In this document: positions 3,561 through 49,851 of the stretch, one piece after another
Numbering within the stretch: the stretch's first letter is position 1
Layout of the letters: each line of letters opens with the position of its first letter
Assembly: GCF_041381155.1 (NCBI RefSeq)
Contig: NC_091140.1
Location: 19,868,864-19,932,863, forward strand
DNA length: 64,000 bases
Reading direction: 5' to 3'
From: Argopecten irradians
Taxonomy: Eukaryota > Mollusca > Bivalvia > Pectinida > Pectinidae
Translations under genes and position numbers: made by a program
The notes under the pieces: generated by a model
Told to the model about the DNA's origin: nothing
Seen by the model: only the letters and a program-made list of their open reading frames with translations
Databases searched by the model: none

Positions 3561-3589
3561 GTAATTTTCCCCAATCCTTATACATGTAT

Positions 3590-17101: not shown

Positions 17102-17186
17102 TCGACGATGCATCTATTTTTAACTACGTTAACCGTACTCCTACCAGGGCTTATTTATGCTGTTCCGATCAACCGGGAGAGTTTTG
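17102..17186 (+). CDS. exon 2: initiator and signal peptide
   Basis: The acceptor TTATTTTCAG is followed by six bases and then ATG at 17108. The first 18 residues, MHLFLTTLTVLLPGLIYA, form a typical signal peptide with likely cleavage after Ala18. The donor G|GTGCGT at 17187 leaves phase 1. A second GT at 17191 would break the frame into exon 3. Confidence 0.85.
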
Positions 17187-20100
17187 GTGCGTAAGCGACA
17201 TACAATTGTATATAACTTTCAACCATTGTTTACACATGTATCAGACAAATGCCTGCATCAAAATTTTACATAATTATAAAAATACCCAGTCATGTTACTT
17301 TATGATTTGACTACTAAATTATACTTATACGCTATACATAATGTTACATATCAATAATAAACATGTTATAACCTCTTTTATAGATTATTATGTTTATGCG
17401 TGTAACTACAATTTAAGCATAAGCAGGAACAAATCTCAAAATACATGCAAGTATAAATGTAAAAAACTGACATTATAAAGCTGAACATGGTACTATTTGT
17501 AAAGTGTAGCGTTATAATAACATTTCTCACGATTATCTCCCCTTCCAAGGTCTGAGATGCGATCGGGAGGTATCGCCAAAGGGAGATAACTACTTCGTGT
17601 TGCTGGTGTTTAACACTAAGATCGATATGCCGTGTCCACCCGGTACCCTGTATAACAAAGCCGTGTGTGACTGTGACCTTCCTCCTGTCGGTGAGCTTGT
17701 TACATACCATTATGTTATGCTGTTTGTGATGATAATGATTTCACTGATTTTGGAATATATCATATATATTGATATGCCATATATATTTATTGGAAAGATG
17801 AAGATTTTTCTTCTATAATTATATAACAATATACATGTATATGAATTATGTAAAATTATAATACCAGATTATTGCCCCTTATTTGAACTTTCTAATCGGA
17901 GAGACAATTATCATCAGGCCAAATATTTGCAATGATTTTTATATATTCTACAATAATGGCGAATCGTTGAGATATGCTTTAACTACCAATTCAGCTTTGA
18001 TATATCCTATGGTAAACTACTAGAAAAAAAGTTGTTTTTTATTGCCAGAAGGCATTTATACAACTATTGCATTGCGTTTGGATTGGTTATTTAGAACCAT
18101 AGAAAAGTATAATCTTTTAAGCATGTTGGGTTTATACAGAGGTGGTCCCTACGGCGGTTTGTTAATTTATTAACACCATCAACAAGATGTATCATCTCAA
18201 ATTTCAGGTCAGACAACAAGCAAACCTACTGTTACCCCGACCCAGTCAACGGCAAAATTAAACAACGTCATGACAGTTGCACCAGAACAAACATCAGAAG
18301 AGAAAATTATAACATCTACATCGGTGAAACCAACAACAGAAACAACAACATCAGTAACGTCCACTACAACCACACCGACAACAACAGAAATGAAAACAAC
18401 AACGACACCAACAACAACAATGAAGCCAACAACGCTTCCGACAACAACAACAACAACAACAACAACAACAGCACCAACACCAACGATTACTACGACGACG
18501 ACAATGAAAAGCACTAGCAAAACCACTATTACTTCTACCACTCCTAAGCCAACAACGACTTACAAAACGACAGAACCAACAAAAGCAACAACAACAGTCG
18601 CGCCCACAACGGAAAGTACGACTCCAGTGACTGTGCCCCCGTCGACCGACACCACAGGTATATAAATGTCATGTTCACTATCAAGTACAATTTAGGCTTA
18701 ATGAACACGACCCGCTTTGTCAAAATTACAGATCTTGCAACGTCTTATGAGATAACTAACAATGGAACCAGTTGTTTCAGGCGTGGTAGCGTTATTCCTA
18801 CTATTATGAATACACCAACTATACTTTAAAGTCACATTTTAATTCGTTAAAACCCAACTAGTTTAGGTAAAATTGATAGCGTTGAAAAAACTTTAATTCA
18901 CTTTCTGATTAATACCACCCGGAAGGCAGTGTAAACGCCAAATATGTTATGCATACTCGTGTTGATTGCTTCCTGTGTCATGCCACATTTAAAGATGCCC
19001 ACCGCCGACAAATGGTATTTTTTCACTATCAAAAACAGAAGAAGACGATTTAGTATTTTTTCTTCAGTTACAAAAGTTACTTACTTTACACCATTACCAA
19101 CATTGAAAAGTATGAGCTTCTAATTTTACTTCAAGTTAAAATTATGAAAAATTCCTTGGCACTATATCCTATATGGAATGAAGTACTGATTGCGCATGCA
19201 CCAAAGGCAAAAAAAATCATTTATATTATTTTTTGTGTTAATTAGACATATATATATATACGATAATACACCAATTATTATTCAAATAATGAATATCATT
19301 TATGCTCTGTCGGCGGTGGAGCATCTTTAAAGCATGTCGATTTTCCCTAGACGTACTTATATGTCGTTGCCAAATAAAACCTATTTAACTGATATATCAA
19401 AGGTGAGACATGGAATTTGTTTTATGCATTACACTCTTTAGATTATATCAACGTTCATTTGTATTTATATATTTTACACCATTACGCCATGACAAGGGAA
19501 ATCTCCCTTATACTGTCTGCCGTGCCCGATAAGGATATTCCCCGGGGGTTACGGAAATAACCACCGTTGTTCTGTATACCTGTATAGTCTGTTCCCCGGG
19601 GTGGTTTGTTGTGGTTTACAGAGATGTGTATCTGTTAGCATTGTAATGTTTACAAAATGAACGACGGTATGTATGTAGGAATGGCTCTATGACTCATATA
19701 AACTGAGTTTAATGCGATACATTGATTCCAGATGTACAGTCATATCATGTCCTGAATATTAATGTATTTGAATATTTCATATCAAGAATCCAATGACGCC
19801 GTATATTCTGTGCAGCAAACAAATCATTTCAGTTTTCTATAATGATAAATCGGATATATGTTACAACCGCTACAGTTTTTACCTTCACGTTGGATATTAC
19901 AAATACAATACTTAAGAAAGATCATTGATATTTGACTGCTTATTTTTTTTTTTTTTTTTTTTTTTTTTTTGAAGTTTGTTTAATTAATGTAATACTGTAC
20001 CCTCAGCGTATTTGTCTCTTTATATTTTTTAAAACTACTTTTTCTTCTTCTTTATTTTAAAAATAGATATATTTAAACAACACGACATAGACAACGGATA

Positions 20101-23100
20101 TTTGATCCGCAGAAATCATTTCAAATAGAAAAATATAATGTTTAAAATTATGTATTTCTTGATATGCATGTATAGTCAAGTTCACGTATTTTCACATTTC
20201 TGTGTACATTCATAATGTGCGATTTTTTTGTTTTGACATTGTTTACTCAGATGATGCCTTAAATGTTGTATACTTTGACAAAATAACAACTGATTCTATT
20301 ATTGTTGTTTTTTAAAGAAATTATTTAGTATCGCGAGACCAAAATAATTTTCAGAATAAGGATAAAGAGGAAGATGGCATCCATGGTATATTAGATAACA
20401 TTTAGTGTTCTCTAACAGGAGGTTCATTAAAGATAATCATGTACAATCTGATTAAAACCATGCAATACTTTTCACATTTTTAAATTTCTTTATTATTTGT
20501 CTAGTTTTTAATATAATAGGTCAAAGGTTATGTTTTTCTGCATTCATTAGTATGTCCATTCAGGGCCGACGGGAATGGGTTTATTGAAAATATCCCTGGA
20601 TTTGGAGATATTTACAGCGAGTGTGGAAGTGGGTTGGAATTCATTCAGTTCAAATGTGGATGTTTCAAGAAAGGTATATGAGATGATATTTGATATGTAT
20701 AATTAATGTACAGGTTATGTAGTTATCGTTTGGGTTGATACATGTATATCAATACCATTATAAGTTTAAAAAAATGTACAACAAAACAGTATCCCAGTCC
20801 TGATACATGTAAATTGACCAATCGTCAGACGTACATAACCATGCGTCGAGCTCGCACGCGCTCGTTTTTGCATCAATTGTAGGAACTAACTTTAATTCGT
20901 AACATACACAAAAATGCACGTGCAGTTTGATCGACAGTTAGTGATCAGGCTATTTGAATGCATGTCTCTCGTTTTCATTTAAAATAAAATGTTTCATGCT
21001 TCAAACTATTAATACAAAACTGCTAATCCGCATTAAGGACCAGAACAACACAGTTTTGTCAGAATATAGTCTGTACCTGTTGATATTACTCCAGAATACA
21101 TGGCGATAATAGATAATGAGGTGTTGAACAACATCACTGTAACCCTTTGATGTCCCACCTATTAATGCCTAAGTAATGTCATGTGAGAATATGCGATTAT
21201 ACCAGTAATTGGCGACTTGCTCATAGAAATCAATATTCTTTGAAATACCATTATCTATATTTGCTATTTACTTTGAAGGTGTGTTTACTGATCCCACATC
21301 AACACCGGTTACCACGGACACAGGTAAATATACTTGGAATTTGTATCACTTAGCAAAAAATCTGCAAATGTAATGGTGCAATCATGTTTTAGTGCAAATA
21401 AGATCTGGAACATATAACCCGAAATGGTAAATTTGCGCAATTACTATACTGACTAAATTAATAACAATTCATCCATGTAACCCTGGCACGAAAAAGTCTA
21501 AAACAAGATTACCGGTAAAATATTACTTTAATGCATAATTCATATGGCTCCCTTTACTTAGATACGGAATTTACAAACAATATTTTAATAACAATGTCAC
21601 AATATATCAATTACGTCAATAATGTCAATTGTCATTTTAATATATGGTAAATACTTAGAGAAAAAAACATCAATTATTATTGAGCTCAGCTACACTTGTC
21701 CAGTTCCACACTATTTAAAAGAGTAACCAGTGGACCCCAAAAGTTTTCATATACTAATGCGTTTTGATTCAAAATAAAAAAATGACAATATACAAGATAG
21801 TAGCAGCACCATGATTTAATCTGAAAATCGATAAATCACTGTCTAATAGAAACAATGCTTGGAGACCATTTATAAATGTCTAAACGGTATAGAGCTAAAT
21901 GCTTCTGAAGTGAAAGTGTCATCAATATCTAAGATATGAGATTCATGAAATTATCTTAGGATTATGTTGTTTGTAAAAAGACGTATCTATGAAGATTAAC
22001 AGAGAGCGACACTCAATTACGATGTCATACAATATACCGTTATTTGATTCTTTTCATGTACATCAAAGAATCAAACTACTTTCCCATCCGAAGTATCTTC
22101 AGGCATATGATTGGTCAGTTGTTATCTTCTGAACTTCTTTCAATTTTGCAATGACGATGTTCTATTAATTCTGCAAATCTGTCTATTCAGTGTGTCGTTC
22201 CCGAAGACAAGGAACAGGCTACGTGGAGGATACTCCGGGGATAGGGAAGGTTTGGCATAGCTGTGGAAAGGACCAACTTTTCCTGAACGCTGCTTGCAAG
22301 TGCGTTCCAAAAGGTAAGCTTGATTAATGATCATTGACTCATGTCGGCCGATTGTCTTCACGGTCGAGTTCCAGAAGGTGTTCCAACTTTATAACTGTAG
22401 GTTTTTTTTTAAATCATTCCCAGCCTTAATACTTACAAATAAAATGTATTTAATTTACTAGTAACCGTTTTAGATGTTCAATCTTTTTTTTACTACAGAT
22501 CAAATGACAGAAACAGAGCCAACGACGAAAGGTGTGTATAGAATTTCTTGTTAACCCGCTTTATTACACACAGAAAAAAAGTTCTTTACTTATCGACATA
22601 CCATTTTTTGTTGTCTATAGCGCTGATCGATTTGATGTCAATCTGCCTAGAATTCAAAGGTTCTAAAAATTGCAATGGGTAATATTGAGTTTGAATTACT
22701 TTCAACTTGATCGAAAAAAAAAGAAATTTGTACCATGTTCATAGACATTTCCAATAGTAAGCGTGAACGTACTACGCGCGCGGACTCGGACGCGTACCAG
22801 GCGATTTCTGGGGATCGTCTCTAAAGGAAAGTTGCATTATTTGTATTTGCAATGAACGTAATTTAAAACAGGGCTCTGAATTTATTAATTATAATAGAAT
22901 CAATTTTGAATTATAATTCAGACATTCTTCAGTCATTACGTTGTTTTGTCAGTATAAAATTGAGACCGACTTGCAATGTATTATACTTCATACACGATAT
23001 GCAGATTACATACGTTGCAGTTGATATTGTACCTCATGTTATAAATTTGCATGTGATCAATCGTATTTTCTCTGACCGCCCATCTCTCACACGAAATCCA

Positions 23101-26100
23101 CCCACTTTCGATAATATAATGTAGACAAACTTGTTTCTGTGTAGTACAGGCAGTACATTTATGCCTACATACAATGTTCGTCTTCACTTCTGAACATTTA
23201 GTATCAACCATTAACAAGCATTTACTAATAAATGTAAAGTAATATATTTTGTGATATAAAACAATAATTAATACCCCGCAATTTACTGGATTCTCTATAT
23301 ACGTAATTTGATTGCGGTAAGAGATTCCGTCGGCTAATGGTGTCGTAAAACTCAACATTCCAAAATATGCGGTGTGTTTTCTTTCGTATGTCGTACGATC
23401 ACACAACTGTGTATACTCCTGCCAAATAATCAACAAACTATTGTATTCAAGTTTAAGTCCATTTCAGATTCATTTCATTATTGACGACGTTGAAAAGATA
23501 TCAATTGCCACTGAGGAAATAGTAGATCAGTTAAAGTTCAACGTGTTAGCCAATCAGAATGCGTACAAAGTTTATACAGTACCCGACAACCTATTCATCA
23601 TGAGCAATTAGCTTTATGTCCACCAAGAGGTCAAACTGTATAGATCTATAGGCACACTTTTGTACCATCCTAGGAACACAAGTCAACAAACTGTCGACGT
23701 TTGTGAAGTTATGGCTTTCAGACAAAATAAACTGTTTTCGTAAAACATAACAATAACTATCGTCACCAATGCTATATCGTAGGTTTGAATGGCTCGCTCA
23801 GTGCACGTGATTGTTACCGTTTGAACTCGCATATTATAATAATACATTCTTACCGTGCGTGTAGCAGTGAAGTATGGGTGTCTGTTAAATGCCAATAACA
23901 GATAGAGATTTATGTGGGTAGACGTAAGATTTACTGGCAAAATTCAAACAATCATTAGTGTTAATGCAATGGTAATGAAGGCAATTAATTGTTTCTGACA
24001 TCTAGCATACAAAACCATTGTTACAAATATCTATCATATATTTCTTTCAGCAGAGATTCAGTAATGTATTATGCTTTAATTACTTTAAACTGAAACCCAT
24101 ATCATTTTACCGATATTGCATGTATTGATAGATTTAGTCAGATGAATTTTGGTCTTCAGGTACATTGCACTGTGGTTTAATCGTAAGTCATAATCACTCT
24201 TCACATCATACCCTGACAACCGTAATGAAATATAATCAAAAAGTTATTGCAGGTTAAATACCATTAATTTATATATGGTTGTATAAATAATCTCTTTCAT
24301 TTACCAAAACTTAAAATAAGTAGTATACTAGTAATGTATGCGTCATTTATAAATATTGATGTTAGGTATGTATAATGTACATTGTCTGAGATTAGGTAGT
24401 ACATAATGTATGTAAATCTCAGGCGTTGTGAAAACTCAAATGTTTCTAAAGAAATCCTGATATCGGTTTTTTTTCGGGATGAATATGATCTCAATAATAA
24501 CATTTTCCTATTGTTCATTTGTTTTTTACAGATTTTATTTTGAGACGACCCCAAGAAATCGCCTTGTACTTGTCCGAGTCCGCGCGCGTAGTACGTTCAC
24601 GCTTACTATTGAAAATGTCTATAATACCCGCTCTTCTCTTCCATAATATACTAGAGCAACTGGCTTTTTGGACATTGCAATGCAATTAATTCAAACAGAT
24701 TCTTTCCTTACTTGTGTTTATGTCATTAGTTTATCTTGTGATCTCTATAGATATTATGACACTTCAATTTTCATTCAGATATGATTACATCTACAACAGC
24801 ATCACCCACTACTACTGCTGCTACCACCATTTCCGAAAGTACAACACAGGACAACACTGCCCGTAAGTATGATGTTTTAAAACCACTGTATATCGTGACA
24901 TTTACGCTGGTTCATATCTTCACAAACTGAAGTAAATACGCGCAAATTAAGAATAAGTAGTTTTAAATTTTCGCGTTCTGACTTTTAGGACTTATATGAG
25001 TCAACTAATTTTCGATATTTTGCAAATACAATTTTCGTGATAATTTCGATGTTCGCGAAATCGCGGAAATATCATCCTGCGAGGTTAGCTGGTTACTCAG
25101 TAATTCAAAGACACTGAAGTTAAACATACCAGTCGGCACTATAATCAATTGATTCTTTGATATCTGGTTTACATAAAAATAATAAGATAAAAATAACAAA
25201 TATATCTTAATATCTTACTTATCGTCTCTGTCTTTATTGAGATAGATTTTAAAAGAAATAATATGCTACACAATTATGATTGTTGTATATATGACATGTT
25301 TAAAACTTTTAGGTTGTAATGATCGTATCAAAGAGGCTAATGGATTCAAAGAGTACAATATCGTCATAATGGACTGGGTGTTCTATGAGTGTTCCCCTTC
25401 ATGGGTGTTCAGTCTCAGTCATTGTGACTGTGTGGATCCAGGTATGTGGTATATTCTATGAAGACCATGAATATTTCAGCATTTTTTAGATGGTTTGAAT
25501 GCTAATATAATATAAGATACGGTCAGTCTAATAGACAGGGTTATCTCAACCCAAATGTAAGATTTTGGCAGGTAAACACGAGGCTTGCAGAGTGTTGACC
25601 GGTCATAATGACACACTTGAAATTATAGTAGTATCCAAGCATTTTCATTGCGCTTCATCATAGAAACCTGTAATGCGGTACATGTAGCCTTAAGACGATA
25701 TCATCAACTTGTCTTGTTATTTCCCTTGCAGCCACGGGATAACCCTTTATAATAAAGTAAATGCATCATCATTGATGACAATATTCAAATTAAGCAACGA
25801 ATGCAAATTAATTAAGATAAAACTAGACGAATGGCAGCGTATCAGTTTTACCTCTTACAATATACAATAATTATTACACACTGGATATATATTTACTTTC
25901 AAATTGATATTTTGCTTTAATCGCTGCTTAACGACTAATTATCTCTTACATCCCCCTAATAATGTGTACAGTACTTTACTTATGTATACTGGATACTTAT
26001 TAAAATTGTCATTTTCCTTTGATCTCTGATTCACGACTAATAAGGACACGATCTTCAAACCGATCGGATGTCAGTATCAATAGTAACGGAAAGTGTCGTC

Positions 26101-29100
26101 GCCTGTCTGTGACAACAGGAATAAAATCAATAAATCAATCATCTTTTTGTAATAGAGATTAATCGTGCAAGGAATTCAGCTTTATCTAAAACTCATTAAG
26201 ATGTACATATGTGGTTATATATGTTTCCCTGTTTTTCATTGAAGGAACAAATCCCGTTCCACCACGCGGACCACCTAAAGGTTTGTATATGTATGGTACT
26301 ATTTTACTTCAAAGACCATAAACTAGATCATATTTTGCATCATCCTCAATACTATAGGAGTTACTATCACTGTATGACTATGTCATAACAAAACTGGATA
26401 TGTGAACGACAACAGATGAAACAGGTAGTTTGGACCTTTGAAGTATTTTGTCCATGCTATTCAAAGACAATGATATTGTATTTCATGTTATGTATATGCA
26501 ATACTGTAACATTTCATATTATTCATAGACTTTTGTTTTACTATTTCATGTTATCCATGTACAATGTTGTATTATCCAATGCTGTTCAATGACAATGCTT
26601 TACTATTCCTTGTTATACATAGATAATGCAATACTAGTATATATGGTAGGTATGCGACTCAGTGTTTCAAGACATTAGATCACATTTGATATTTATAATT
26701 AATTTATTGCATTCATACTTCGATGTATACAATTTCATTTCATAATTGTTTCAAAATAATGTAGATCTGCACTCTGATACCATTTAAATATTGTTTCATC
26801 TAATGCAATCCTTTCATAATAATCGCAATAGATCGTGACAACATCTTAACAAATCAGTGTTCAAAGGGAAGTAACTCATTAACTCATCTTCAAACGAGAT
26901 TCGGGTTAAAGTCTTACTATGCGCTTATTGTTATGAACAGTTTGTATGTAAACTGTAAGTCACATCAATTCGATTGAATTTAATGGATTGTTTATATGTA
27001 CTTTCATAATTGTAAACTTACTTTTGCGCACTTTATAATCAAACTAAACTCGCGAAAGGTTTCAACTATTACATTTTAGTTTTCTACGTTATATTTGAAA
27101 TATTTCATTGCAATCATCCGCTAATGTTAGTATTCGTAAGCTTTTTTAATTTCCTAACGTACGCTGTTTCCATTATTTTCAATTTGAAAAATGATTAATT
27201 TCATTGGGTAAATTTGTACTTGTGTGAACATGTTGTATTATATAAACCTTGTGCTTATGTTACAGAAGTTGTTTCGACTTTATCTAATCTTCCAATTTCA
27301 GTTAGTTTCTTTTATCTGTTACATGTAATACCGTTCCATTTATATCCAGATTGTAGCAATTTTGAGATAAAAGGAACAGGATATATTGAGCACATTGCTA
27401 ATTTTGGAGCTGTATATCACAACTGTCCCCCAAACCAGATATTCAGCATGAGAGTATGCGATTGTACAGGTAGGTACTATATATATGTATTTTAGACACG
27501 TAAAATAAATCACGTAATATCTTTGAGTTAATGTCGGAGATTTATTTCGTCTTTTTATTTGCATTGCAAAATTACTATACAGCATCGGAATAGTTTGTTA
27601 GATATTTGAAATAATTTATTTTTAGGTGATTTTATTTGTGAAATATTGTTAGAAGATTTACAGAGAAAAAGATAGAAGTTTATATTATTCTATTAGTGAT
27701 AACACTGAAGTATCATAAGTACTTTTAAAAATTTGATAACAACTATCTACCTTTTGCTAATTTAGCTGGGTATATTTATATACTTTTACTCCATTAACTA
27801 ATTATTCATGTTTAGGTGGTGGCAGTGAACATACAGATGGACATACTAGAACTGATACTATTAGATTAACGGACGCAAACAAAGTCGGTAAGTAATTACT
27901 CCGAAATTCAAATAATCTTGTGTTAAATGAAAATAATAAAAACTGTACGTCTGTCTTAATTTTCGGAATACATGTTTAACATCTTTTAATTAAAATAGCG
28001 GTATCATTTTCTATTATAGCCTTACAAAAAGGTCTTCAACATAACAAATGTTTAGTTTATGTGAAAAAATATCAATGAAATCATTAATCATTATGATTTA
28101 TATTACATCGGTAATTTAATTTCAGTTTTTTGATACTGCTTGAAAATGAAACAATATTTTCATTTAATATTAGTTCAACATATTATAAGTCAGCACTATG
28201 ATAAGATCATACACTAATGTAACCTGTTATTTGGTTGCAGATTGCAGTTTCGAGGCGCAGGGAGACGGGTATATAGAAAACGTCCCGGGGGTAGGGGATG
28301 TATACTATACATGTGCAAATAATCACAGATTCGTCAATGGACTTTGTCGTTGTATAGATAAAGGTAAATTTGATTTCTTTGGCGATAATCATCATAACAG
28401 AATCCTCAAAGTCACAAACACAGACTTTTGAGGGTCTACACATTGCAGCACTAAATTTGTTTATTTACTTTTCATTGTCATTCCTTTTTGGTATAATTTT
28501 GTTAAAATGAAATTGAGTATCAATAACAATGTATAATTTATGTTTTGTTTAACAAAACTAGATACGATTGGTATTCATGTATTTATCAATTATCGTCATA
28601 TTACCACCATATTTTATTCTAATCTTGAATTCTTTTACTGTAGGTATAACGGTTATTGATGAGACAAACAACAATCCGAAAACTACACTCAGCCCCACTG
28701 CAACTTCCAACAGAGCAGGTTGGTTAAAATTTCCAAAATACATTCCAGTGTGTACCTTTTCGATAGAGAATCATTTGGTCCTTCAAATAAGTTTGTCTTT
28801 GACATAAGTCTCCGCATATGGCATAGCAAGAGACACGCGCCTTTCATCTGTCAAATTTGTTTCGAAAATACATAATGTCACTTGCTAGTAGAGAGTGCGG
28901 CGAAAGCGCCGAAGGCCAATTCGTGTAGCGAACACTTGTGACAGAGGTGTCTCGGTATCGTTAATCTATGTCAATCATTTAAAAAGAAGCTATACTTTGA
29001 AAAAATTCGAAATGAAAACATTAGTGAAATATGAACATTCCAATTTATTCTTAAAATACCTGAATCTTTACTTAAAAGCCGTTTAACGTGACCATTCGCT

Positions 29101-32100
29101 TCGGAATTTTCCGCCTGGCAACGGATCGGAGAATGACGTTGAGATATGTTTTGTTGCCGCAGTTACGTATATTTGCATAAAGTGAAAGTAATAGTATCCT
29201 GTGTTCAATATTGTTTTTCGTGTTATAAGCTCAATGCCAGTAATTCAGCAAAGCAATGATTCTAATAATTGATGATTCTAATCATAGTTTCAAGCAGTAC
29301 AATTAGTCAGTAATAAGCAATAAGAACAAAGCACAAGACTGGGCTGAAGTTGGTTCCGAGTTCCAAGTTCCGTTTAAGCTAAACGGAACTCGGAACTGGT
29401 TCCGAGTTCCGTTTTACTTAAACGGAACTCGGAAAAAATGGGAGTTGAAAAATTGGGAGTTGATCGAAAACTAAATTAAAGTGGATTTACCAATATTAAT
29501 CCATTAAAAAAGCCAACAGGCAAGATTTCTAATATGTCCAAAGCACATTGACTTTTTCATCTGAAATGATAGAGAATTTCTTTAAACGGAATTCGGAACT
29601 GGTTCCGAGTTTCGTTTTACATAAACGGAAATAGATGTTATTTGGAAACGTATTTAAACTAGCTCTATCACAAATTATCCATAAAAAACGCACCAGAGAA
29701 CATTTGTAATATGTTCAAATTACATAAACTAAAATTTTTAAATTTTGTTTTTAAAAACAAAATCCTTAAACGGAACTCGGAACTCGGAACCAACTTCAGC
29801 CTCCCCAAGACTGAATGGTCAGATGAGATATCTTTCCGCTGTTAGAAATCCTTTATTTACATGACATATTTCTATTTAGTAACAGTTAAAACAAACCAAC
29901 AATCAAAATAATGGATTAACTGCTGCGTTCTCAGATAGGCTTTGCCTGAAATTATATTATGACAAATAATACTGCACAAATGCCATATCAAGTTTTCACA
30001 AGCATCCATTGTCTTATTTTCCTTGTATAGATTTGACGACAATAACATTCCTAGCCACAACCACTTCAATCAACGATGGATTCCGTGAGTACTGTTTAAT
30101 ATTGTATAACAAGAAATTATAGTTGTGAAGAAACGTTCGTCACCGCGAATGTTAAAGGCCCACTACCTTTCAGGAGCAAAAAATAAAGGTTCCTTAAAAA
30201 CAATAGTAACATTAGAAAATACATATCGATGGCATAAGATGAGGTAACAACACAAAACATATGCAAGATTTCAAGCGTAATATATGATAAATGTAGAGAT
30301 TCATTTCGCTTTTTTGCCGTCTGGCGCAGTGATAGTCAACTACCGATCGGTATGTAGGACGACGGCGAAAAATTAAAAAATTTCTTTATTTTAATTTAAT
30401 TCTTTAGAAGATGATGATTGGTCATATTAACGATAAGTTAATAACTTTTGCGACTCTACAAAATTATCGATCTCGTTTAACTTTCGCATTTTAAGAATTA
30501 AAAGCCGTTTCGGAAAGGTAGTGGGCCTTTAACAATAATGACATAATTTAATACAATAATGGAATCAGTGGGACAACGATGAATCAATGTTTTAGTCCAA
30601 GAAATACTAAAAGAGTTCTAAACAACGAAAGACAAAACCTGCAAATATTTTATGATATATTGCAACAGTAAATGAATTATATGTCTGATCAATCAACTTT
30701 AAGAACAAAAGTAATGAGTATGATCAGTTTCTGACGGGAAAAATATTTATATTGTTTTAATATATGCACTTCACATATGATTTCAGAATGTAAAAACAGA
30801 AAGAAATCTGGACATGGATATTTAGAATATTTTGAATCTTTGAGTGACTGGGTGTTCTTTGGGTGTTCTACCAGACAAGAATTTAGCATCACAGAGTGCG
30901 ACTGTGTTACCAAAGGTGAGTATCAAGCACAGTGAATCCTGGTTTTACCGACACTCTATGGGACCGAGAACATGTAAATGTGTCGGATAAGACAGGTGTC
31001 GGTAAAATCAGTGGCCGGTGTTATTCAGAACTCGAGATCATGAAACAGTCTTAGACTGAAGTTTTTGCTTAGCCAATAAAATGATGTCATATTTTTGTAA
31101 CGTCATCTGTATTTGGCTAAGGACTAAGTCTAAAAACTTAGGACTCTTTTTTTGGAGTTAAGTCAAACGTTACATGATCTTGGGGTCAGGCTTTGTGTTT
31201 TCACTGTAACGCATATCAAAAGGACATACCGTTGTTCCCAAAACGCTGTGTAAAATGCTCCTTTAAAATCAAAGACTACTTTTTAATAATACTAGTTGAG
31301 ATATATTCTCATCATTTATGTCTAACATATCAAAAATGTTAATTGGTTAATGCAAAAATGCACCTTATACCTCCAATAAGAGTTAATTCTATTCACTCCT
31401 AAACAAATTTTACCTCTCTTTAATGTTGTTTCTAGATATCTCGTAATGTGTTTATACTATTGTAGCATCTTTTTACTGTTTTAGAACATATTGTGTCAAT
31501 CAAGTTTTCAAGAAAGCTGATTCTAGTAAAATACGTTTAGGTAATTATTAAATATTTATTTACGCAAGTCAGTTGGTCAGACACATTATGTATAATGATA
31601 TGTTTTCTAAAATTATCGTCTTTTTCAAATTTTAATTTCAGGTGGAAATGTTGCCATACCAAAGCCAACTACAGGTAGGGTCTCTGACTGCATCACATAT
31701 ACTTTTAGAGTTTCCATATCGGGATAATTAATGTATACGTTGGAATAAGTGTCTTTAGAAATATACACAACTCTCAAACATGTTATCAAAATATGAAAAT
31801 ATTAAAACTGTTTGCAAAATATTCTAACCTATTAGCATTTTGTAGATTGTAATCTGGAAAGCAAGAGGAAATGGATTTGTAGAGTATATTCCGGGATTAA
31901 TATGAAAATATTAAAAATGTTTGCAAAATATTCTAACCTATTAGCATTTTGTAGATTGTAATCTGGAAGCAAGAGGAAATGGATTTGTAGAGTATATTCC
32001 GGGATTAGGAGATGTTTACAGTGACTGTCCTCCGTCACAGCTGTTTTACTCCTCTTTGTGCGCGTGTGGAGGTTAGTGACACAGTAGCGATTGTCTGGAT

Positions 32101-35100
32101 CTACATATATACATACATTGACAATGCAGATCGAATTTCTATTTAATATAAGATATTGCGATTTAAGTCTGACACTCTATCATGCAAAGTTAGAGGACAT
32201 CAATAACGCTACTAAAATCGGCATTTGACTATCGGCCCGAGAACATTTGATTTGCATCTGCTTTTAAAAAATAGATTTAAGATTAAAATAAAAACCATAA
32301 CAGACTATATATCGAAATAAATTATGTGAAATAAATAGAAATCTATTCCCAACTCACATTACGAATATGAAAGTTGGTTATATTTATGTTTCTTGGTATG
32401 TTTTAATCAGGATGTATTTTTATTTCTTTTCATATGTCATCAACAGCAATTGGATCTGGCAAAAATGATATTGTCATCACTATAACCGACCAAAACCGAG
32501 TTCAAAGTAAGAGATTGTTTTACTAATCTCTTTTCGATGAAGTCAATATTATTTCATACAAAACAATATTTAGTCAACATAAACTGTTGAATTTATCTTT
32601 ATCCAATCTAATACAAATGACAAGTTTGTGTTTTTCATATTAACGTTTGTTTAATTGTTTTTTCTAAAATGTAATATTTAACAGGTTCGATTTAATTGTT
32701 TTTTTTTTTTAAGTTTTACCATAACACTATCTTGTAAAACATATTATATTCATATTGCGTTCTTGAAAGTAGATAACATCAATCGATTTATTACAAGACA
32801 CTATTCACTTGTATCAATTATGCTTTGTTTCAAAGATAGGATATATATAATACTGTAATTAAATGTCCTCAGTTGTTGTGTCAATATAACATGTTAGCTA
32901 AACAACTACAGATGTCACAGCCAATTTCCAGTACTTACCACGTACAGCCTATCAAACGCCATCTGGCATTCCATAGTCAGATAGCATATTATTCTTGTGC
33001 CATCGGGTGATGACGTAGTCCTCGAAGACCTAAACTTTCAATTGACGGATCGCCAGCGGTCAATCAAACTGCCCATATATTACACGAGACGTTGTATTTT
33101 GTATTGTAAATGTTACGACGCTTGCTCAGACATTCCAGGTGAATGTGCACTTCTGATTACGAGGCGTAACTAGATACTGTACTGCCTGGCGATTGGTCAA
33201 TACAGTTTTTTGCTTTATTTCATTACATTTTATAAAACAAAATCAATGAATTGTCATCATATTTCGATTTATTGCAATTACAAAATCGTCATCTTAAAAA
33301 AGCAGTAACAGCTACGAAACAACTACAATAACGCGTTAAGATATTTGGGAAAACTTATGCAAATTTATCATTTATTCATATTTGAAGAGTATCTAAGTGG
33401 GGTATACCGACAGTTTGACAGATATCTAACAAACGTGGTCTTCCAGAAGGTGAAATGTTTTAAAGTCTAAAATATTTTTGTGTACAATATCACTTCAATC
33501 AATACCCATTTCAGAGGCTTTCTGAGTCATGAAATAATCAAGGTTATTTTTTTTTTGAACTTATAATGCTCGTTGTTTGTATAGATGTTTTTCAGTATTT
33601 TTTTTTCTTTATAAAATTTTCTTTGTACATCACAGACTGTGCATTCGAAGAGCGTGGGGACGGATTCGTTGAACATGTCGTTGGACTTGGTCTAGTTTAT
33701 CACGACTGTTCTGGAAGTGAACGATTTGTATCTGCGTTGTGCAAGTGTATAGACAAAGGTACGCTTTTCAGAGACATATTATACCAAAGAACATCAGTGA
33801 TGTTTATCATCATTTCGATGGAAAATCAAGTATATTAATTGTTTACATTAACACAAATCAAGGATTAATAAAAATATAAACTTTTAATTTATTTTTCATC
33901 GAAAAACATTTATACTGTTATGAATCACTTTTTAGATATGAATCACGTTTCTTAAAGTGGCCGAAGAAAACTCACGTGTAACCCTTGACTTTCTTACGTC
34001 TGTGCGGGATCGACCCGGTCTGTGAAAAGTTATCTACAAACCCGACCACAGCGGGGGAACAGTTTTAACTTTACAATTACATATTATTATCATATTTTGG
34101 TGACATTGTTTACAGTTAAAGCATCATTTAATAATCAGATTTACGACCAGTCATTAAGTCAAATCCTTTACGGGTTTGTTCATGTTATATAATTATTTTG
34201 TTTGTCTATATAAGCTGTTTTCTCGACAGTATTACCAAATGGTTTATGGTGATTCATTTTGCGTATGAGTTTTGAGAAAAAATCAGTATTGAAATAAGAA
34301 CAAAACGTCTGCCTTTTTTATTCGATTGTAATTGTCCAGAGAGTAAAATTGGATCGATTTTACTTGATTAATATTATTCTGTTGTCTTTGTTTCAGATAC
34401 TAAAATCATTGATAACTCTTCCCCATCGAGGACTACAACTACACCAAAGAGTACTGCGGGTAAGAGTTGGTAAACGATTTTGTTAGCATGTAGTATGTTG
34501 TATGGTAATCCATTTTAGACGCATATGGTGAATATAGAATTAATAATTTTGATTCACTGAAACAGTCGTAATTATCAAGCGTAGCGATACTGAAAGGAAA
34601 TATTCAACTGGAACACAATACGATTAAAACTTCTCCGTCACCCCTTAATCTATTTTCCTCATCCTTTTAACATTATTGTAAATATTTGTACTTCTGTTGT
34701 TGTTTTAACTCTGTATTGTGTCATGTTTCCATCAGCGAGTACTGCAGCTACTACAGATCAGACTACGACCAGGCCAGGTAAGATCCTCAATCTAGTTGCA
34801 TTTAGTTATGTTTTATTTTACAATTGATGTTAAATCCATATAAATGCACTAATTATTTGAAGCATTTAAAGTTCTTGATGTGTTTAAACTTAAATATCTA
34901 CAAACTAGATATAAATATAAGATAAATATATACTCTTATCGATACAGCCTACTGTAAACATAGAAGTTTACGCGAGCGGGATATATACGGTAATTGCGCA
35001 AGGGTCGCTTTATCTAACGCGAAAGTTTAATGCAAGTAAATCGCGAAGTTAAGCGCTCGTAAAAAAATCCACGTTTACAGAATACGACGAGGAAATATAA

Positions 35101-37202
35101 AACCACTACAAAATATAATGTATATTGAATCAATTATAAGTTAGTTTATTTATCCGCCATTGCTCTACAAAGCTAATAATAGTTTTTTTTTTTTTTTTTT
35201 TTTTTACTTTGTTCTTACTTAATTAACATAGAGTTCTCTACGGTTCCACCAACCTCCACAGCAAGTCCACCGTCTTCTACCGGTACTGTTATTACCAATA
35301 AAGGTAAGCTGTTTATTGTATGGTACCTGTTATTATAGGGTCAAGGCACATGTAATATACGCAGTATTGAATTAAATCAACTAAAGTTTCGTTTAGTAAA
35401 TATGAAGTTGTGTTCACGTAACTCAAATTTCTTTCAAATAACTACGCTACTTAAAAGTGTCAAAATACAATGAAATCCATATTAAATCACTTTTCTTCGA
35501 ATTCCAATCCATTACATTACGTTTTCAACCAAACTAATATGTCGATGCCAAATAAAATGCATCGAGTCGGTCATCTTTGATCATAGTACATGTAGTCCAT
35601 TTCAACAACGAACCATTAGTATTGTTCGGTTGACACAACGTATACCGTTACAACTGATACGAACCTGCAAATGAAACGCGTGGACAGTATATTGATGGTG
35701 ATTTACTATTGACCTTTTATAGATTGTATATATGAGCAAGTTCCCGGTGCTAGGCGTGAGTTCCGGACACCGATGGCGTGGATGCCAGGGCAATACATGT
35801 ACTTTTCGTGTAACATAGGACAAGAATTCGACATTACGGCATGTAGCTGCGTAGACGAAAAAGGTATCCGACACTGTAAACTGATTGAACAGAAATTTCA
35901 AATAGGATAAGAAAGAATGCCATATCATAATACAATCTCTTTAATTGCAAAATAGCATATACTACACTCAAAGAGAACAATATCCTATTAACCAAAAACA
36001 TCTATTATCTCATATAATGGTCTATTTCATTTCATCTTCTAGCCAACTATGTAAATGTGTATTCAAAAGTGCTTGTTCATAACTTTTGAAACTTCCTGGT
36101 TGATGGTTACTTACAAAGACGTCTACACTGTTTCCTAGAAGAAAGCTAATTGAGTAGCCGAAAAATTGAAAGTAGAGACGTTTTGAAGTTACACGTTAAA
36201 AAGGAGATACACGTGTATATTTGAAACAAAACTTGATGGTTAAAACATCTGATATTTTACCTGAGTGAAATAGTTGATACAACTACTTGTTAATGTGTCT
36301 AGTTTCCAAAATGTTCTGTGTAAATTATGTATCAGCACTGCCCTGTGTAGAGGTGATCATTATTAATATTTTGTACATTATATATGCCTAATGCATAATG
36401 TTTGATTTTATTCCAGTTACGACGACACAACCCACTATCAATCCAGGTAATTAAGGCCGTGTATTAAACAACTATAAATGCCTAAAGTATAAATATATAT
36501 GTAACAAATAATCTGTATAACTCTTTGCATTTTATGCTTGCATGTAATATTCCTTACGTTTTGCAAATTAATTTTAAGTTGATACATCGAACATTTTTTG
36601 TAACGCAGATTCATGATGCTAGGATCAGGTGTTATTTGCTACTTCAAAACATTATAATTATATATCTACGCCAACAAAAAATATATCATCCCGGAAATGT
36701 TTGGAGAGCTAACACAACAGGATAACAAACAATATGTAGATACTAACTTGAACAAATATAATCTGCTCTCGCATGATTTTTTTAAAAATATTGGGTGCAA
36801 TTATGTATATTTATGTAGGATTGTTAACGACAGAATAAGTATACCAAAACATTGTATTCCATCTTTTGTTTCCACATGCATCAATTGTATTGCATGATGG
36901 TTTATTGTATAGTTGTTAATTTCGAAAGTGTCGCATTTCGCGATTTGCTCATTGCAATTTATTGGCGGTGATTTCTTTGTAGCCCATAAAAGCGTCATTT
37001 GCTTATTATGACAAAATAACACATGGCTTTTCAGCTTAGGCGTTGCTTTTTGTTTACACCGATAGATTGTCCCTTTCTTCCGTCTGCTATCGGCGACAAT
37101 TACTTCCGCTTTTTGCTTTTTGGAATTGGATGGGTTGAGTTCAGCTGTGCCACAGGACAACGATATGATTATAGCATGTGCTTATGTGTCAGACGTACCT
37201 AA
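17108..37202 (+). CDS. Modular secreted mucin-like protein with eleven 4-Cys domains (26 coding exons)
   Basis: I joined 26 exons, all with GT-AG sites: 17108-17186, 17550-17690, 18208-18657, 20551-20673, 21279-21323, 22191-22313, 22499-22531, 24779-24862, 25313-25441, 26245-26280, 27350-27469, 27816-27887, 28241-28363, 28644-28718, 30031-30084, 30787-30915, 31642-31674, 31955-32071, 32447-32506, 33636-33758, 34397-34459, 34736-34777, 35232-35303, 35723-35863, 36417-36446, 37066-37202. The total is 2634 nt, 877 residues and one TAA. Every junction is phase 1, so all internal exons are multiples of three. Order: signal peptide, Cys1 (27-73), Thr-rich mucin segment (74-223), then Cys2 to Cys11 separated by linkers of 10-42 residues rich in Thr, Ser and Pro. 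All eleven domains fit C-x(22-27)-C-x10-C-x-C, and most have G-x-G-[YF]-x-E and V-[YF]-x-x-C. I recognise no named family. The second half resembles the end of a chitin-binding type 2 domain lacking some cysteines. A secreted, O-glycosylated matrix or mucus protein is inference. Small phase-1 exons may have been missed. Confidence 0.85.
17550..17690 (+). CDS. exon 3: Cys domain 1
   Basis: 47 codons. Spacing C-x25-C-x10-C-x-C with GDNYF before the second cysteine. The end, CPPGTLYNKAVCDC, is the copy most like the C-terminal part of a chitin-binding type 2 domain. Closest relative within the protein is domain 11, which shares the 25-residue spacing and GDNYF. Confidence 0.8.
18208..18657 (+). 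CDS. exon 4: Thr-rich mucin segment
   Basis: 150 codons, mostly Thr with Pro, Ser, Lys and Glu, and no cysteine: a dense O-glycosylation substrate. It includes a run of ACA triplets at about 18440-18472 giving consecutive Thr, so copy number may vary between individuals. The valine-rich frame on the other strand (18209-18541) is its shadow. Confidence 0.85.
18993..19326. mobile_element. TTAA-flanked MITE, family A copy 1
   Basis: Terminal inverted repeats start AGATGC[C/T]CCACCGCCGACA at both ends and are flanked by TTAA at 18989-18992 and 19327-19330, the target site of piggyBac-type transposases. Non-coding, 334 bp, in intron 4 of the modular gene. The same interior (GCACTATATCCTATATGGAATG, followed by TGCGCATGCA) recurs inverted at 41377-41732 and, truncated, near 40058-40337. 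Confidence 0.8.
19943..19970 (+). repeat. poly-T tract
   Basis: 28 consecutive T in intron 4 of the modular gene. A similar 22-base tract lies at 35184-35205 in intron 23. Confidence 0.9.
20551..20673 (+). CDS. exon 5: Cys domain 2
   Basis: 41 codons, C-x22-C-x10-C-x-C, with NGFIENIPGFGDIY before the second Cys. The acceptor is the AG at 20549-20550, because the AG at 20562-20563 would break the phase-1 frame. The 5' breakpoint of the 29-kb duplication falls inside this exon, near 20617. Confidence 0.8.
22191..22313 (+). CDS. exon 7: Cys domain 3
   Basis: 41 codons, C-x22-C-x10-C-x-C with GTGYVEDTPGIGKVWHSC. Strong acceptor CTATTCAG and donor AAAG|GTAAGC. Linker exons 6 (21279-21323) and 8 (22499-22531) flank it. 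Confidence 0.85.
22741..24622. mobile_element. 1.9-kb DNA transposon with about 80-bp terminal inverted repeats
   Basis: The left end 22741-22821 and right end 24542-24622 are inverse copies over about 80 bp, starting ATAGACATTT and including a CG-rich core with GTACTACGCGCGCGGACTC. The flanks give at most a TA or ATA duplication. No transposase is recognisable inside, so it looks non-autonomous. One protein-like frame (about 23467-23611, plus) is noted under findings. It sits in intron 8 of the modular gene. Confidence 0.8.
25313..25441 (+). CDS. exon 10: Cys domain 4
   Basis: 43 codons, C-x24-C-x10-C-x-C with DWVFYEC and CDC. The upstream linker exon 9 (24779-24862) ends in C rather than G, so the residue before the first Cys is Arg. 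Exons 16-17 share this odd junction and the DWVF motif, marking domains 4 and 7 as a pair. Confidence 0.85.
27350..27469 (+). CDS. exon 12: Cys domain 5
   Basis: 40 codons, C-x23-C-x10-C-x-C with GTGYIEH and NCPPNQIFS. It ends directly after CDC with Thr-Gly and lacks the DKG tail of other copies, as does its pair, domain 8. Confidence 0.85.
28241..28363 (+). CDS. exon 14: Cys domain 6
   Basis: 41 codons, C-x22-C-x10-C-x-C, with GDGYIENVPGVGDVYYTC and the tail CRCIDKG. Strong acceptor TTGGTTGCAG. Paired with domain 9 (tail CKCIDKG). Confidence 0.88.
29342..29805. mobile_element. MITE with nested palindromes and 7-8 bp target duplication (hAT-like)
   Basis: Both ends carry GGCTGAAGTTGGTTCCGAG followed by TTCC[A/G]AGTTCCGTTTAAG in opposite orientation. 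CAAGACTG flanks it on both sides (29334-29341 and 29806-29813), as expected of a 7-8 bp target duplication. The interior repeats GGAACTCGGAACTGGTTCC-type palindromes three times. About 465 bp, non-coding, in intron 15 of the modular gene. Confidence 0.85.
30156..30528. mobile_element. TTAA-flanked MITE, family B
   Basis: Perfect 16-bp terminal inverted repeat AGGCCCACTACCTTTC, flanked by TTAA at 30152-30155 and 30529-30532. 373 bp, non-coding, in intron 16 of the modular gene. TTAA targeting suggests mobilisation by a piggyBac-type transposase. Confidence 0.85.
30787..30915 (+). CDS. exon 17: Cys domain 7
   Basis: 43 codons, C-x24-C-x10-C-x-C, with GHGYLEYFESLSDWVFFGC and CDC. Same spacing and DWVF motif as domain 4. 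The exon before it (30031-30084) also ends in C, giving Gln before the first Cys. Confidence 0.85.
31021..31185. mobile_element. hairpin-type dispersed repeat, copy 1
   Basis: Contains GATCATGAAACAGTCTTAGAC and TTGCTTAGCCAATAAAATGA, and ends near GTTACATGATCTTGGGG. An inverted relative lies at 37490-37625. Ends pair as CATGATC...GATCATG. In intron 17. Confidence 0.6.
31790..32008 (+). repeat. 110-bp tandem duplication covering an acceptor and half an exon
   Basis: Copy 1 (31790-31898) and copy 2 (31899-32008) are near-identical, each with the intron end, the acceptor TTTTGTAG and about 55 bases of exon 19. Copy 1 has one extra A (CTGGAAAGC against CTGGAAGC), shifting the frame. Copy 2 continues into the full exon 19. 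Copy 1 is therefore a decoy acceptor with a dead half exon. Confidence 0.9.
31955..32071 (+). CDS. exon 19: Cys domain 8
   Basis: 39 codons, C-x22-C-x10-C-x-C with GNGFVEYIPGLGDVYSDC and CPPSQLF. It ends CACGG without a DKG tail, like its pair, domain 5. Confidence 0.85.
33636..33758 (+). CDS. exon 21: Cys domain 9
   Basis: 41 codons, C-x22-C-x10-C-x-C with GDGFVEHVVGLGLVYHDC and the tail CKCIDKG. The preceding linker ends in A, so the residue before the first Cys is Asn. A close copy lies at 52387-52509. Confidence 0.88.
33955..34070. repeat. degenerate dispersed repeat in intron 21
   Basis: Weak match to 52725-52840 in the equivalent intron of the duplicated copy (AAACTCACG... against AAACCCACG...). 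The insertion therefore predates the duplication. Confidence 0.4.
35723..35863 (+). CDS. exon 25: Cys domain 10
   Basis: 47 codons, C-x27-C-x10-C-x-C, the longest first spacing. GQYMYFSCNIGQEFDIT precedes ACSC. Three linker exons (22, 23, 24) separate it from domain 9. Confidence 0.85.
37066..37202 (+). CDS. exon 27: Cys domain 11 and stop
   Basis: Acceptor CACCGATAG, then 44 codons after the split Asp and TAA at 37200. Spacing C-x25-C-x10-C-x-C with GDNYFRF and GQRYDYSMCLC. The chain ends four residues after the last Cys. Linker exon 26 (36417-36446) precedes it. Confidence 0.82.
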
Positions 37203-39162: not shown

Positions 39163-42100
39163 TTACTTGGTACACAACTCTTTATGGCCGAATAAGATGA
39201 ACCGAGCTACCGTACCGAGAGTGCAGTTAAGTGTTCTGATAGACGTCAAGCTATATACCTTCTTGTAATACCGCATAAATAAATGTATAGCGTAATTGTT
39301 GGACCAATCAAAATTATTCTGAAATAAATCCTTTGTGTGACCAGCGTCCGGCCGAACAAATGTTTTGTTCTCTACGTGGATCATATCTGGATAGATTTTC
39401 GATAGCTTTGCTGGCATAATTGTTGAATGATAGCCCCATTTGTTTGGATCATATGTGTCGTAAGCTTTGATCCAGATATTCAGGAAACCAGCATCTCTTG
39501 CAGAAAGAATAAGACCATTGCTAAGGTTGAAATCGAAAGCTTTACTAAGGGTGAATTGATGTTTTCTTAGGGGATCCAGTTTCCGTAACAGTATTTCATC
39601 CGTGTCCATGTATATACCACCATACTCTGAAAGTAATAAAGGCAGGTGCAATGTATTTACGTCAACAAAAAAATCATTGCGATTGTCCTATTCTGTATTT
39701 GCGTATTATCTGCTATTTGTTTTTATAAAAAATAATTGTGAAATCATGAGCGTAATGTCATAATTTTCAGCAAAGGGAGGTAACTCTGTTACATTCAACG
39801 ACGGAATACGCCTATATTAAAATTGACGTAATTTTCGAAACTTTTATACCTTAAATGAGACAAGATTAAACGTTCCCTACTGGTATTAAAAGAAAAACAT
39901 AAATAATAGCAAGCACGACACAAATTATTATCTGGTTTCATCTCTATGAATTCCAGTTGTTTCCAATAACATAGTTTGCGTTTTGTTAAGAATGTTCCAT
40001 TGCCGACAGAGCATATACAATGCTCATCATTTGAACAATACCTGATGTTAAACCATGTAAATATGTGTCTAATTAGCACAAAAGTACTTATACAATAATT
40101 TATTTTGCTCTTGGTGTATGCGCAATCAGTACTTCATTTCATATAGGACATAGTACCATGGATTATTTTCGGAACACAATTTATTATTTTCAATATTTTT
40201 ATCCTAAAATAAAATAAGAAGCTCAAACCTTGCAATAGTGGTAATGGAATAAAGTAAGTAACTTTTGTAACTGATTCGTCAATTTATTCCTGTTTTTGGT
40301 AGCGAAAAATACCAAAACTCGTCAGCGATGTAGCATCTTAAGTTAATGTCATACTTAAAATGCATTGCATTGCACAGCTGCTAATCTACTCTGTCATAAC
40401 ATCAAAATGAAATAAATACAGAACAGCTACATCTTAAATACGCAATAAGGACTGAAAATATTGATTCGAAAAATAAGCTGTATCGATCTAAATTAGTACA
40501 AGAAGATGTAAATGGCGAATATACAACACGATTAACAGGAAAAAGACATCAAAGGTGAAACAATGAATAAAAAACAATATATTAGATCAGATTGTGTGTT
40601 AACCATGTGCCCAATATTAAGTTTAGACATAAACATGCATTTGATAATATCATAATGCAAATATTTTCTTTACAATGTATAACACCGACTATGTTACTAT
40701 GTTGAAGCTACTGGTCATTTACTTATACTACCCACCTTTCAGTACATTCAGCCGTGTTATATCCGCTTTGTGTTCGATGTGCAATATGGTCTTGTTTGCA
40801 ATTTCAACCGGAGGGATTTGTTGTAAAAATAATATATTAGGAACAATTTTCAGCAGAAAGTTCCAGTATTCTCCCGTTGGCATAAAATCTCCGTGTATAA
40901 ATATCACACAAGGTTTCTGTATTTTGAACACACTGTAAACACTAAGGAAATGATAAAATCGCATAGGGCGCATGTTATACCATACATAGTGAACAATATT
41001 TGGCACGGGGAAGTTGCTGGAGCAGTTCAGTCGTAAGAACGTTCTTATACATGGATGTTGGAACTGCAGTACTGGAGTACTGTCTGTGACTTGCGTCGAT
41101 TCCCTGACAAGATATCCTTTGTCTTGGTCACATACAGGGACTAGTTGGACACGGCTAGGTGAATCGAACGTCATATTGATCGCTCTGCAATTGTATTTGC
41201 ATTGCAATGTCCAGTCAGAAATGTCTCCCATTTTGGGACAATTGTCATTTACAGGAATAGGCTTCTGAATGACAGTACTCTTAAACATCTCATCTTTCAG
41301 TATGCCGCCTAAAAAACGGTGTATTCAAATTAATGGATTAACATAGAGTATAAGCTGTCTATAAAGACCACTTTAAGATGCACTACCGCCGATTAAGCAT
41401 AGGCGATACTAATCAATGGAACATTAATTATATATAATATTTTGTATAATCGTGTATATGTATGTCTAATTACACAAATTTAATATGAAATCATTTATTT
41501 TGCTTTTGATGCATGCGCAACCAATACTCCATTCAATATAGGTTATAGTGCCACGGAATTTCTTCATGATGCAATTAATTATTATCAATATTTTTGTCTT
41601 GAAGTATAAACATTTCAGTGGCAGTAATGGTGTAAAGTAAATAAATTTTGTAACCGAAGAAAAAATCTAATTCGTCTGCTCCTGTTTTAATAGAGCAAAA
41701 TACAGTGTACCACTTGTCAGCGGTGGAGCATCTTAAATGGACAGACGGAAAAGAGCTAGAGCTAGGTAGAAGTATTGTAGCCTTGATAAACAAGTGGACT
41801 TGTGTTGAAATTGGTCATTTAAGGAATGTGGTCTTATTAAGCAGGTGGTCTTTACACAAAGTTGATCGCTAAGAGGGGATTTACTGTAATTGCAATTGAC
41901 ATGTCCAGGAAATTCTAATAGAAAATTAAAATAAGAAAATATCTTATTGTAAGTAATGTTGACTTGCACGTACTCGTTTTTAATCTTCATTGGGGGTACT
42001 ATTGAACAAGCAAATCATTCTTAACCTTCGTATTCAATTCCATTAAATATACTTTTGATATTATCTTAATTAATATCGAAATTATTAACTATACTTTATC

Positions 42101-49074: not shown

Positions 49075-49369
49075 GTATGTAATTCAGAACTATTCCCTAG
49101 TTTAATTGTTAATTGTGTTACTTTGTAAATATTTTCGGGGTTAATAGCTTTTTTCATGGATAAAAAATACATGTCAATTGTTTTCAAGTTGTATTTCTTG
49201 TAATTTTCACTGAAACGATATGTCGTTTTAACATTTGATATTTGAACATGGTCATGTATCTTGATGATTAAGCTCCCCAAAACCATATGTCAGCCTATAA
49301 GAGAGCCGAAATCTCGGGATCATAAATTCCTGGGATTGAATAAAACTCCTTCAATCACCACTAAAATAG

Positions 49370-49430: not shown

Positions 49431-49437
49431 ATTGCCA

Positions 49438-49649: not shown

Positions 49650-49851
49650 GGTATGCACTTCAGAACTATTCACTTTTTAATTGTTAATTGTGTTGCTTTG
49701 TAAATATTTCCGGGGTTAATAGTTTTTTCATGGTTAAAAAAATTACATGTCAATTGTTTTAAAGTATATCACTTGCTTACAGACATTAAATTTCTATTCA
49801 GGGATTTAGTAATACTGTGCAGAATTATTGTCAGTTAAATCAATTATTGCT

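What the first reader, a model, noticed from the sequence alone, without database searches (positions are those of the whole stretch)
17108..37202. Unnamed four-cysteine domain repeated eleven times in a mucin-like secreted protein
Eleven separate exons encode C-x(22-27)-C-x10-C-x-C with an invariant 10-residue middle spacing and recurring G-x-G-[YF]-x-E ... V-[YF]-x-x-C. I know no family with exactly this pattern. The GYIE..PG.G.VYY.C core and CPPGTLYNKAVCDC resemble a chitin-binding type 2 domain that has lost cysteines, so a derived chitin/matrix-binding domain or a new small disulfide domain are both open. Together with the Thr-rich segment, it may be a mollusc mucus, byssus or shell-matrix component.
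Basis: partly seen in the sequence, partly recalled or inferred. Interest (0 to 1): 0.8.

Follow-up and report, generated by a model that had tools for sequence, protein, structure and literature searches.

The report
Amplified derived chitin-binding modules, mucin-like
A predicted secreted, mucin-like protein in what looks like a mollusc genome is built from eleven copies of a small module that is not a new domain but a worn-down descendant of the common animal chitin-binding domain, of the kind also found in the Pif-like genes of the same genome.

Summary
Eleven exons at 17,550-37,202 (+) encode C-x(22-27)-C-x10-C-x-C; the motif occurs 12 times in the window against a mean of 0.03 in 60 shuffles. 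A 26-exon model gives 877 aa with a signal-like start, no internal stop, Thr-rich linkers, and all 24 internal exons in phase 1-1. Pfam finds no domain in it at E<=1.

The module is most likely a derived CBM14 (peritrophin-A type), not a new fold. The predicted structure of module 1 has CBM14 structures as its top 14 Foldseek rows. Similarity to CBM14 profiles beats 200 of 200 Cys-preserving shuffles. Fourteen other loci of this 846-Mb genome carry the same four-Cys module; nine have a CBM14 within 20 kb upstream on the same strand, and four have a Pif/BMSP laminin-G peptide downstream. It fits the 'CB-like' module of Pif/BMSP genes, amplified here without VWA, CBM14 or laminin-G in the model.

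The aromatic that chitotriosidase needs for chitin binding is absent in 11 of 11 copies, so chitin binding is uncertain. Best reading: a multivalent, glycosylated matrix or mucus protein working like a peritrophic mucin. New variant of a known kind.

The parts
17108..17186 (+). exon 1: start codon and signal-peptide-like sequence MHLFLTTLTVLLPGLIYA, donor phase 1
   Evidence: signal peptide judged by eye
17550..17690 (+). module exon D1, nearest to the modules elsewhere in the genome (CPPGTLYNKAVCDC); phase 1-1
   Evidence: weak Pfam CBM_14 match E 0.0098 below cut-off; CBM14 fold
18208..18657 (+). large Thr-rich mucin-like exon T1, phase 1-1
20551..20673 (+). module exon D2, phase 1-1
21279..21323 (+). 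linker exon T2, phase 1-1
22191..22313 (+). module exon D3, phase 1-1
22499..22531 (+). linker exon T3, phase 1-1
24779..24862 (+). linker exon T4, phase 1-1
25313..25441 (+). module exon D4, phase 1-1
26245..26280 (+). linker exon T5 (not Thr-rich), phase 1-1
27350..27469 (+). module exon D5, phase 1-1
27816..27887 (+). linker exon T6, phase 1-1
28241..28363 (+). module exon D6, a typical copy; phase 1-1
   Evidence: fold model pLDDT 88.6
28644..28718 (+). linker exon T7, phase 1-1
30031..30084 (+). linker exon T8, phase 1-1
30787..30915 (+). module exon D7, phase 1-1
31642..31674 (+). linker exon T9, phase 1-1
31955..32071 (+). module exon D8, donor GTTAGT, phase 1-1
32447..32506 (+). linker exon T10 (not Thr-rich), phase 1-1
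33636..33758 (+). module exon D9, phase 1-1
   Evidence: 92% identical to its duplicate at 52,387 against 74% in noncoding flank
34397..34459 (+). linker exon T11, phase 1-1
34736..34777 (+). linker exon T12, phase 1-1
35232..35303 (+). linker exon T13, phase 1-1
35723..35863 (+). module exon D10, a divergent copy; phase 1-1
36417..36446 (+). linker exon T14, phase 1-1
37066..37202 (+). last exon: module D11 and stop codon
52387..52509 (+). module exon D12: duplicate of D9 in a downstream segmental duplication, outside the main gene

Best explanation
The locus is one gene for a secreted, mucin-like protein of about 877 residues: a signal peptide, then eleven CBM14-derived modules of about 40 residues, each separated from the next by one to three linker exons that are mostly Thr/Ser/Pro-rich. 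Supported by computation: the two modules modelled (D1, D6) resemble the CBM14 fold, and the modules belong with a four-Cys module that follows CBM14 domains at other loci of the genome, some with Pif/BMSP laminin-G peptides. Inferred: a module of that kind was copied here on a phase 1-1 exon and multiplied by tandem exon duplication, with linker exons of the same phase between. Compared with six-Cys CBM14 the module keeps one canonical disulfide: by spacing and structural offset its second and fourth cysteines correspond to CBM14 Cys4 and Cys5 (C-x12-C; chitotriosidase Cys450-Cys463), while the first and third would form a new bond. The protein would work as O-glycosylated beads on a string: the compact modules give many weak binding or cross-linking points for an extracellular polysaccharide or matrix, and the Thr-rich linkers give hydration and reach, as in insect peritrophic mucins. 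Binding to chitin itself is inferred and uncertain, because the aromatic after the last cysteine is missing in all eleven modules.
Confidence: 0.6

Rival explanations
1. The modules keep the CBM14 fold but no longer bind chitin or any glycan; they are compact disulfide knots that space, protect or cross-link a secreted mucus glycoprotein, or bind other matrix proteins.
For: A chitotriosidase construct lacking W465 and N466 loses chitin binding (PMC4844120, passages); the residue at the W465 place (last Cys +2) is not aromatic in 11 of 11 modules (D2 has a Phe one place earlier). C-P-x-G after the second cysteine is kept only in D1.
Against: An aromatic three residues before the second cysteine is present in 9 of 11 modules and G-x-G-[YF] in 7 of 11; these fall on strands 2 and 3, where chitotriosidase also has exposed aromatics, so another sugar face is possible.
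Confidence: 0.3
2. A new, unrelated small four-Cys domain that resembles CBM14 by convergence.
For: Four rather than six cysteines, no Pfam family over cut-off, weak profile scores, D6 Foldseek list led by other folds.
Against: Top fold matches of D1 are all CBM14; similarity beyond cysteine spacing exceeds 200 of 200 shuffles; the same module follows CBM14 at other loci.
Confidence: 0.06
3. The locus is a decaying or unexpressed gene, or two genes split within the interval.
For: Degraded copies of D2, D9, D10 and D11 lie in segmental duplicates downstream; a truncated copy of exon D8 lies at about 31,841-31,900. Other start or terminal exons inside the interval were not searched for systematically.
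Against: 24 of 24 internal exons keep phase and frame; D9 exon 92% against 74% flank identity in the duplicate pair.
Confidence: 0.08

Closest known systems
CB-like domain (CBM_14L) of Pif/BMSP shell matrix proteins
   Same: A four-Cys module between CBM14 and laminin-G peptides at Pif/BMSP-like loci of the same genome; same Cys pattern, hhalign E 1.5e-12 to the window modules
   Different: Here it occurs eleven times with linkers, and the model has no Pfam match and no laminin-G peptide. That the published CB-like domain is this four-Cys module is inferred from position; the main text of the paper has no 'cysteine'.
CBM14 / peritrophin-A chitin-binding domain (PF01607)
   Same: Predicted fold, C-x12-C pair, core aromatic six residues after the second module cysteine in 11 of 11
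   Different: Four instead of six cysteines, C-x-C ending, no aromatic at last Cys +2, below the Pfam cut-off
Human chitotriosidase CBM14 (5hbf, 6so0)
   Different: Has six cysteines and W465, needed for chitin binding (PMC4844120, passages)
Insect intestinal mucins and peritrophins
   Same: Secreted alternation of CBM14-type modules and mucin-like stretches (recalled; one search gave a search listing only)
   Different: Their modules have six cysteines (recalled); the modules here are of the four-Cys type

Membership tests
CBM14 (PF01607) | Six conserved cysteines, three disulfides | tested here: not met
   Four cysteines in 12 of 12 window modules
CBM14 (PF01607) | Score over the Pfam gathering cut-off | tested here: not met
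   1 of 12 window modules matches, 16.4 against 22.1 bits; of 10 of 13 genome relatives scanned, two match below cut-off (19.7, 16.3 bits) and a third only in its neighbouring CBM14-like part (11.6)
CBM14 (PF01607) | Distorted beta-sandwich of three plus two strands | tested here: met
   Predicted models of D1 and D6 have five strands; CBM14 tops both VIA lists; prediction only, two of eleven modules
CBM14 (PF01607) | Sequence profile similarity beyond cysteine spacing | tested here: met
   0 of 200 Cys-preserving shuffles reach the real hhalign score in each of three tests
CBM14 (PF01607) | Exposed aromatic after Cys5 (W465 in chitotriosidase) | tested here: not met
   Second residue after the last Cys is not aromatic in 11 of 11 modules
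CBM14 (PF01607) | Chitin binding | not testable with these tools
   needs protein and pull-down
Pif/BMSP CB-like four-Cys module | C-x(about 20-27)-C-x10-C-x-C profile shared with modules next to CBM14 and laminin-G peptides | tested here: met
   hhalign window against genome modules E 1.5e-12; context
Pif/BMSP protein family | VWA, CBM14 and (partial) laminin-G in the same protein | tested here: not met
   No Pfam match in the 877-aa model at E<=1; no window match to the two published LG peptides at E<=10. Window sequence outside the model was not scanned for VWA.
Peritrophic-mucin type architecture | Signal peptide, repeated chitin-binding modules, mucin-type Thr-rich stretches | tested here: inconclusive
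   Order of parts fits; signal peptide judged by eye, splicing predicted, chitin binding untested

The most novel reading that the evidence does not exclude
A disulfide-rewired CBM14 module (Cys4-Cys5 kept, Cys1-Cys3 and Cys2-Cys6 lost, a new bond gained) has become an independent unit in molluscs: once placed in Pif/BMSP shell proteins next to laminin-G, and separately amplified elevenfold into a stand-alone mucin, with a ligand other than chitin.
Probability: 0.35. Interest if true: 0.55.

Novelty: new variant of a known kind. Interest (0 to 1): 0.4.

Why it matters
Pfam reports nothing in this 877-residue protein, so such proteins would be left as uncharacterised. Recognising the four-Cys module as a derived CBM14 gives a profile to find them, ties a mucin-like protein to the module set of Pif/BMSP shell proteins, and poses a testable question: does a CBM14 that lost cysteines and its key aromatic still bind chitin, or another matrix sugar?

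Tried and rejected
New domain: disfavoured on fold, profile and genomic context. A first mapping of module C2/C3 to CBM14 Cys4/Cys5 from the x10 spacing (in a note) was dropped: the structural offsets (D1 1-45 on 5hbf 424-468; D6 2-40 on 426-466) and the x12 spacing put CBM14 Cys5 at the module's fourth cysteine.

Phage protein search: no match. NCBIfam: nothing relevant. Laminin_G_3 in the genome: 28 matches at E<=0.01, none near the four-Cys loci; laminin-G was found there only with the Pif-specific peptides. A try at the species through a myosin peptide gave one match at 50% identity and was dropped; a paper search on one candidate's chromosome number did not help. Paper searches that could have listed a tandem or mucin-like use of such a module showed none in their listings; papers seen: passages of PMC11291548, PMC4844120 and PMC6128652. 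Genome searches score only the best candidates, so locus counts are lower bounds. Rows dropped before the 13-row genome alignment: L042 (peptide same as L041), L049, L055, L035 and L036 (CBM14-type, not four-Cys).
Full report
Observation. Eleven + strand exons between 17,550 and 37,202 encode C-x(22-27)-C-x10-C-x-C. The motif is found 12 times in the window, the twelfth at 52,389-52,499, against a mean of 0.03 (maximum 1) in 60 dinucleotide-preserving shuffles; 11 of the 12, and none in the shuffles, also pass a simple phase 1-1 splice-site test. A model of 26 exons from 17,108 to the stop at 37,202 gives 877 residues with no internal stop, and all 24 internal exons are in phase 1-1. The fourteen linker exons total 369 residues, 37% Thr, 9% Ser and 11% Pro; without the big T1 exon, 220 residues with 30% Thr; T5 and T10 are not Thr-rich. 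The first exon reads as a signal peptide by eye. Splicing is predicted, not shown. The model gives no Pfam match at E<=1, although D1 alone touches CBM_14 at E 0.0098, below cut-off.

Constraint. Downstream of the gene lie segmental duplicates with remnants of D2, D9, D10 and D11. In the D9/D12 pair the module exon is 113 of 123 bases identical (92%) and the linker exon 55 of 63 (87%), against 894 of 1209 (74%) in aligned noncoding sequence, which supports these as coding exons; gene conversion is not excluded.

Relatives in the same genome. The window lies in an 846-Mb genome. Single modules D6, D7, D1 and one relative (the C8:10.4 Mb module) were used as queries. Outside a cluster of about 84 kb on C7 (the window locus and its downstream duplicates), D6 finds one place (E 1.04) and D7 none, so the derived subtype is local as far as these searches reach. 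D1 and the relative together find the four-Cys module at 14 other loci on seven contigs; several had single-sequence E-values of 0.2-2 and were accepted because the open frame shows the Cys pattern. The majority consensus of 13 of these with D1 and D11 is C...Y-x-x-x-V-x-G-x-G-W-x-x-x-P-C-A-P-G-T-x-Y-x-x-x-x-C-x-C. Window (12) and genome (13) modules are one family by profile comparison, E 1.5e-12.

Link to CBM14 and Pif. A search for CBM_14 gave 144 matches in the genome at E<=0.01. Nine of the 14 four-Cys loci have one within 20 kb upstream on the same strand; 0.024 were expected (which was given 16 of the 144 rows, chosen by me on the contigs concerned). Four of the nine lie under 1 kb away. 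Not all are independent: two C9 loci share one CBM14, and the C8:33.1 Mb and C13:7.5 Mb loci are duplicates. In L043 and L045 a CBM14-like part and the four-Cys module share one open frame. The two laminin-G peptides used by Shimizu and colleagues (PMC11291548, passages) match downstream of the modules in L045 (E 8e-6, 50% identity), L043 (E 6e-4 and 0.016), L041 and L042 (E 0.015) and weakly, for the C16 locus, in L026 (E 0.11); E-values are for the fetched loci only. [quoted passage not shown] The four-Cys module fits the CB-like domain by position; this equation is my inference. I did not test these loci for VWA.

Cysteines and binding. In chitotriosidase the pairs are Cys420-Cys440, Cys450-Cys463 and Cys460-Cys462 (PMC4844120, passages); in Avr4 four pairs are reported, among them Cys40-Cys70, Cys64-Cys109 and Cys86-Cys101 (PMC6128652, passages). 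The structural offset of D1 (1-45 on 424-468) puts module C2 on Cys450 and C4 on Cys463, C3 near 461 and C1 near 425; this is read from the range ends, not from a residue table. The module's C2-C4 spacing of x12 is also that of CBM14 Cys4-Cys5 in most of the sequences. So the module would keep one canonical disulfide and, by inference, gain a C1-C3 bond. A chitotriosidase construct lacking W465 and N466 loses chitin binding; the equivalent place is not aromatic in 11 of 11 modules. Aromatics are kept three residues before C2 in 9 of 11 modules and six residues after C2 in 11 of 11. Chitin binding is therefore open.

How it works. Most likely a secreted O-glycosylated string of small beta-sandwich beads that binds or cross-links an extracellular matrix or mucus polysaccharide through many weak contacts, as peritrophic mucins do (recalled). 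Shell, byssus or gut cannot be decided here. Origin by duplication of phase 1-1 exons from a Pif-type module is inferred: the acceptor phase matches at the two loci looked at (L012, L032), their 3' ends were not examined, and L043 and L045 do not have the module on its own. D1 scores highest with genome modules (best 87 with L044, mean 52, against a window mean of 23), while D2, D3, D5, D6, D8 and D9 resemble one another more and D4 pairs with D7.

Verdict. Well-formed predicted gene; most likely not a new domain; a stand-alone, elevenfold amplified, cysteine-reduced CBM14 derivative of the Pif/BMSP CB-like kind. New variant of a known kind. The listings showed no description of such a stand-alone protein; they cover open-licence papers only.

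Noticed in passing
49,734-61,153 and beyond the window to about 113,200 in window numbering (loci L013-L018): Repeated segmental duplications (98.8% identical over 11.4 kb in one pair) downstream of the gene carry broken copies of module exons; another set carries the neighbouring glycosyltransferase region.
   Followed up: partly
39,163-41,288 (-): Open frames of a glycosyltransferase-like gene (one with Pfam Gly_transf_sug E 5.6e-7, DXD region) next to the mucin-like gene; the region recurs downstream at about 97-98% identity.
   Followed up: partly
31,841-31,900 (+): Truncated, frame-shifted tandem copy of the start of module exon D8 with its acceptor, just upstream of the intact exon.
   Followed up: no
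10,275-11,456 (-): Single open frame of a rhodopsin-family GPCR, 393 aa (7tm_1 E 2.9e-51).
   Followed up: no
171-4,392: Region of dense internal repeats; GC skew about -0.39 over the first 4 kb; not analysed.
   Followed up: no
48,752-49,189; 49,435-49,850; 60,049-60,547: Dispersed repeat, 80-90% identical copies, with an open stretch MKISANTSWPAGTAGLMSMKCPTCIL at two of them.
   Followed up: no
L043 and L045 (C8:20.09-20.10 Mb of the genome): Two Pif-like loci about 8 kb apart on opposite strands, each with a CBM14-like part and the four-Cys module in one open frame.
   Followed up: partly
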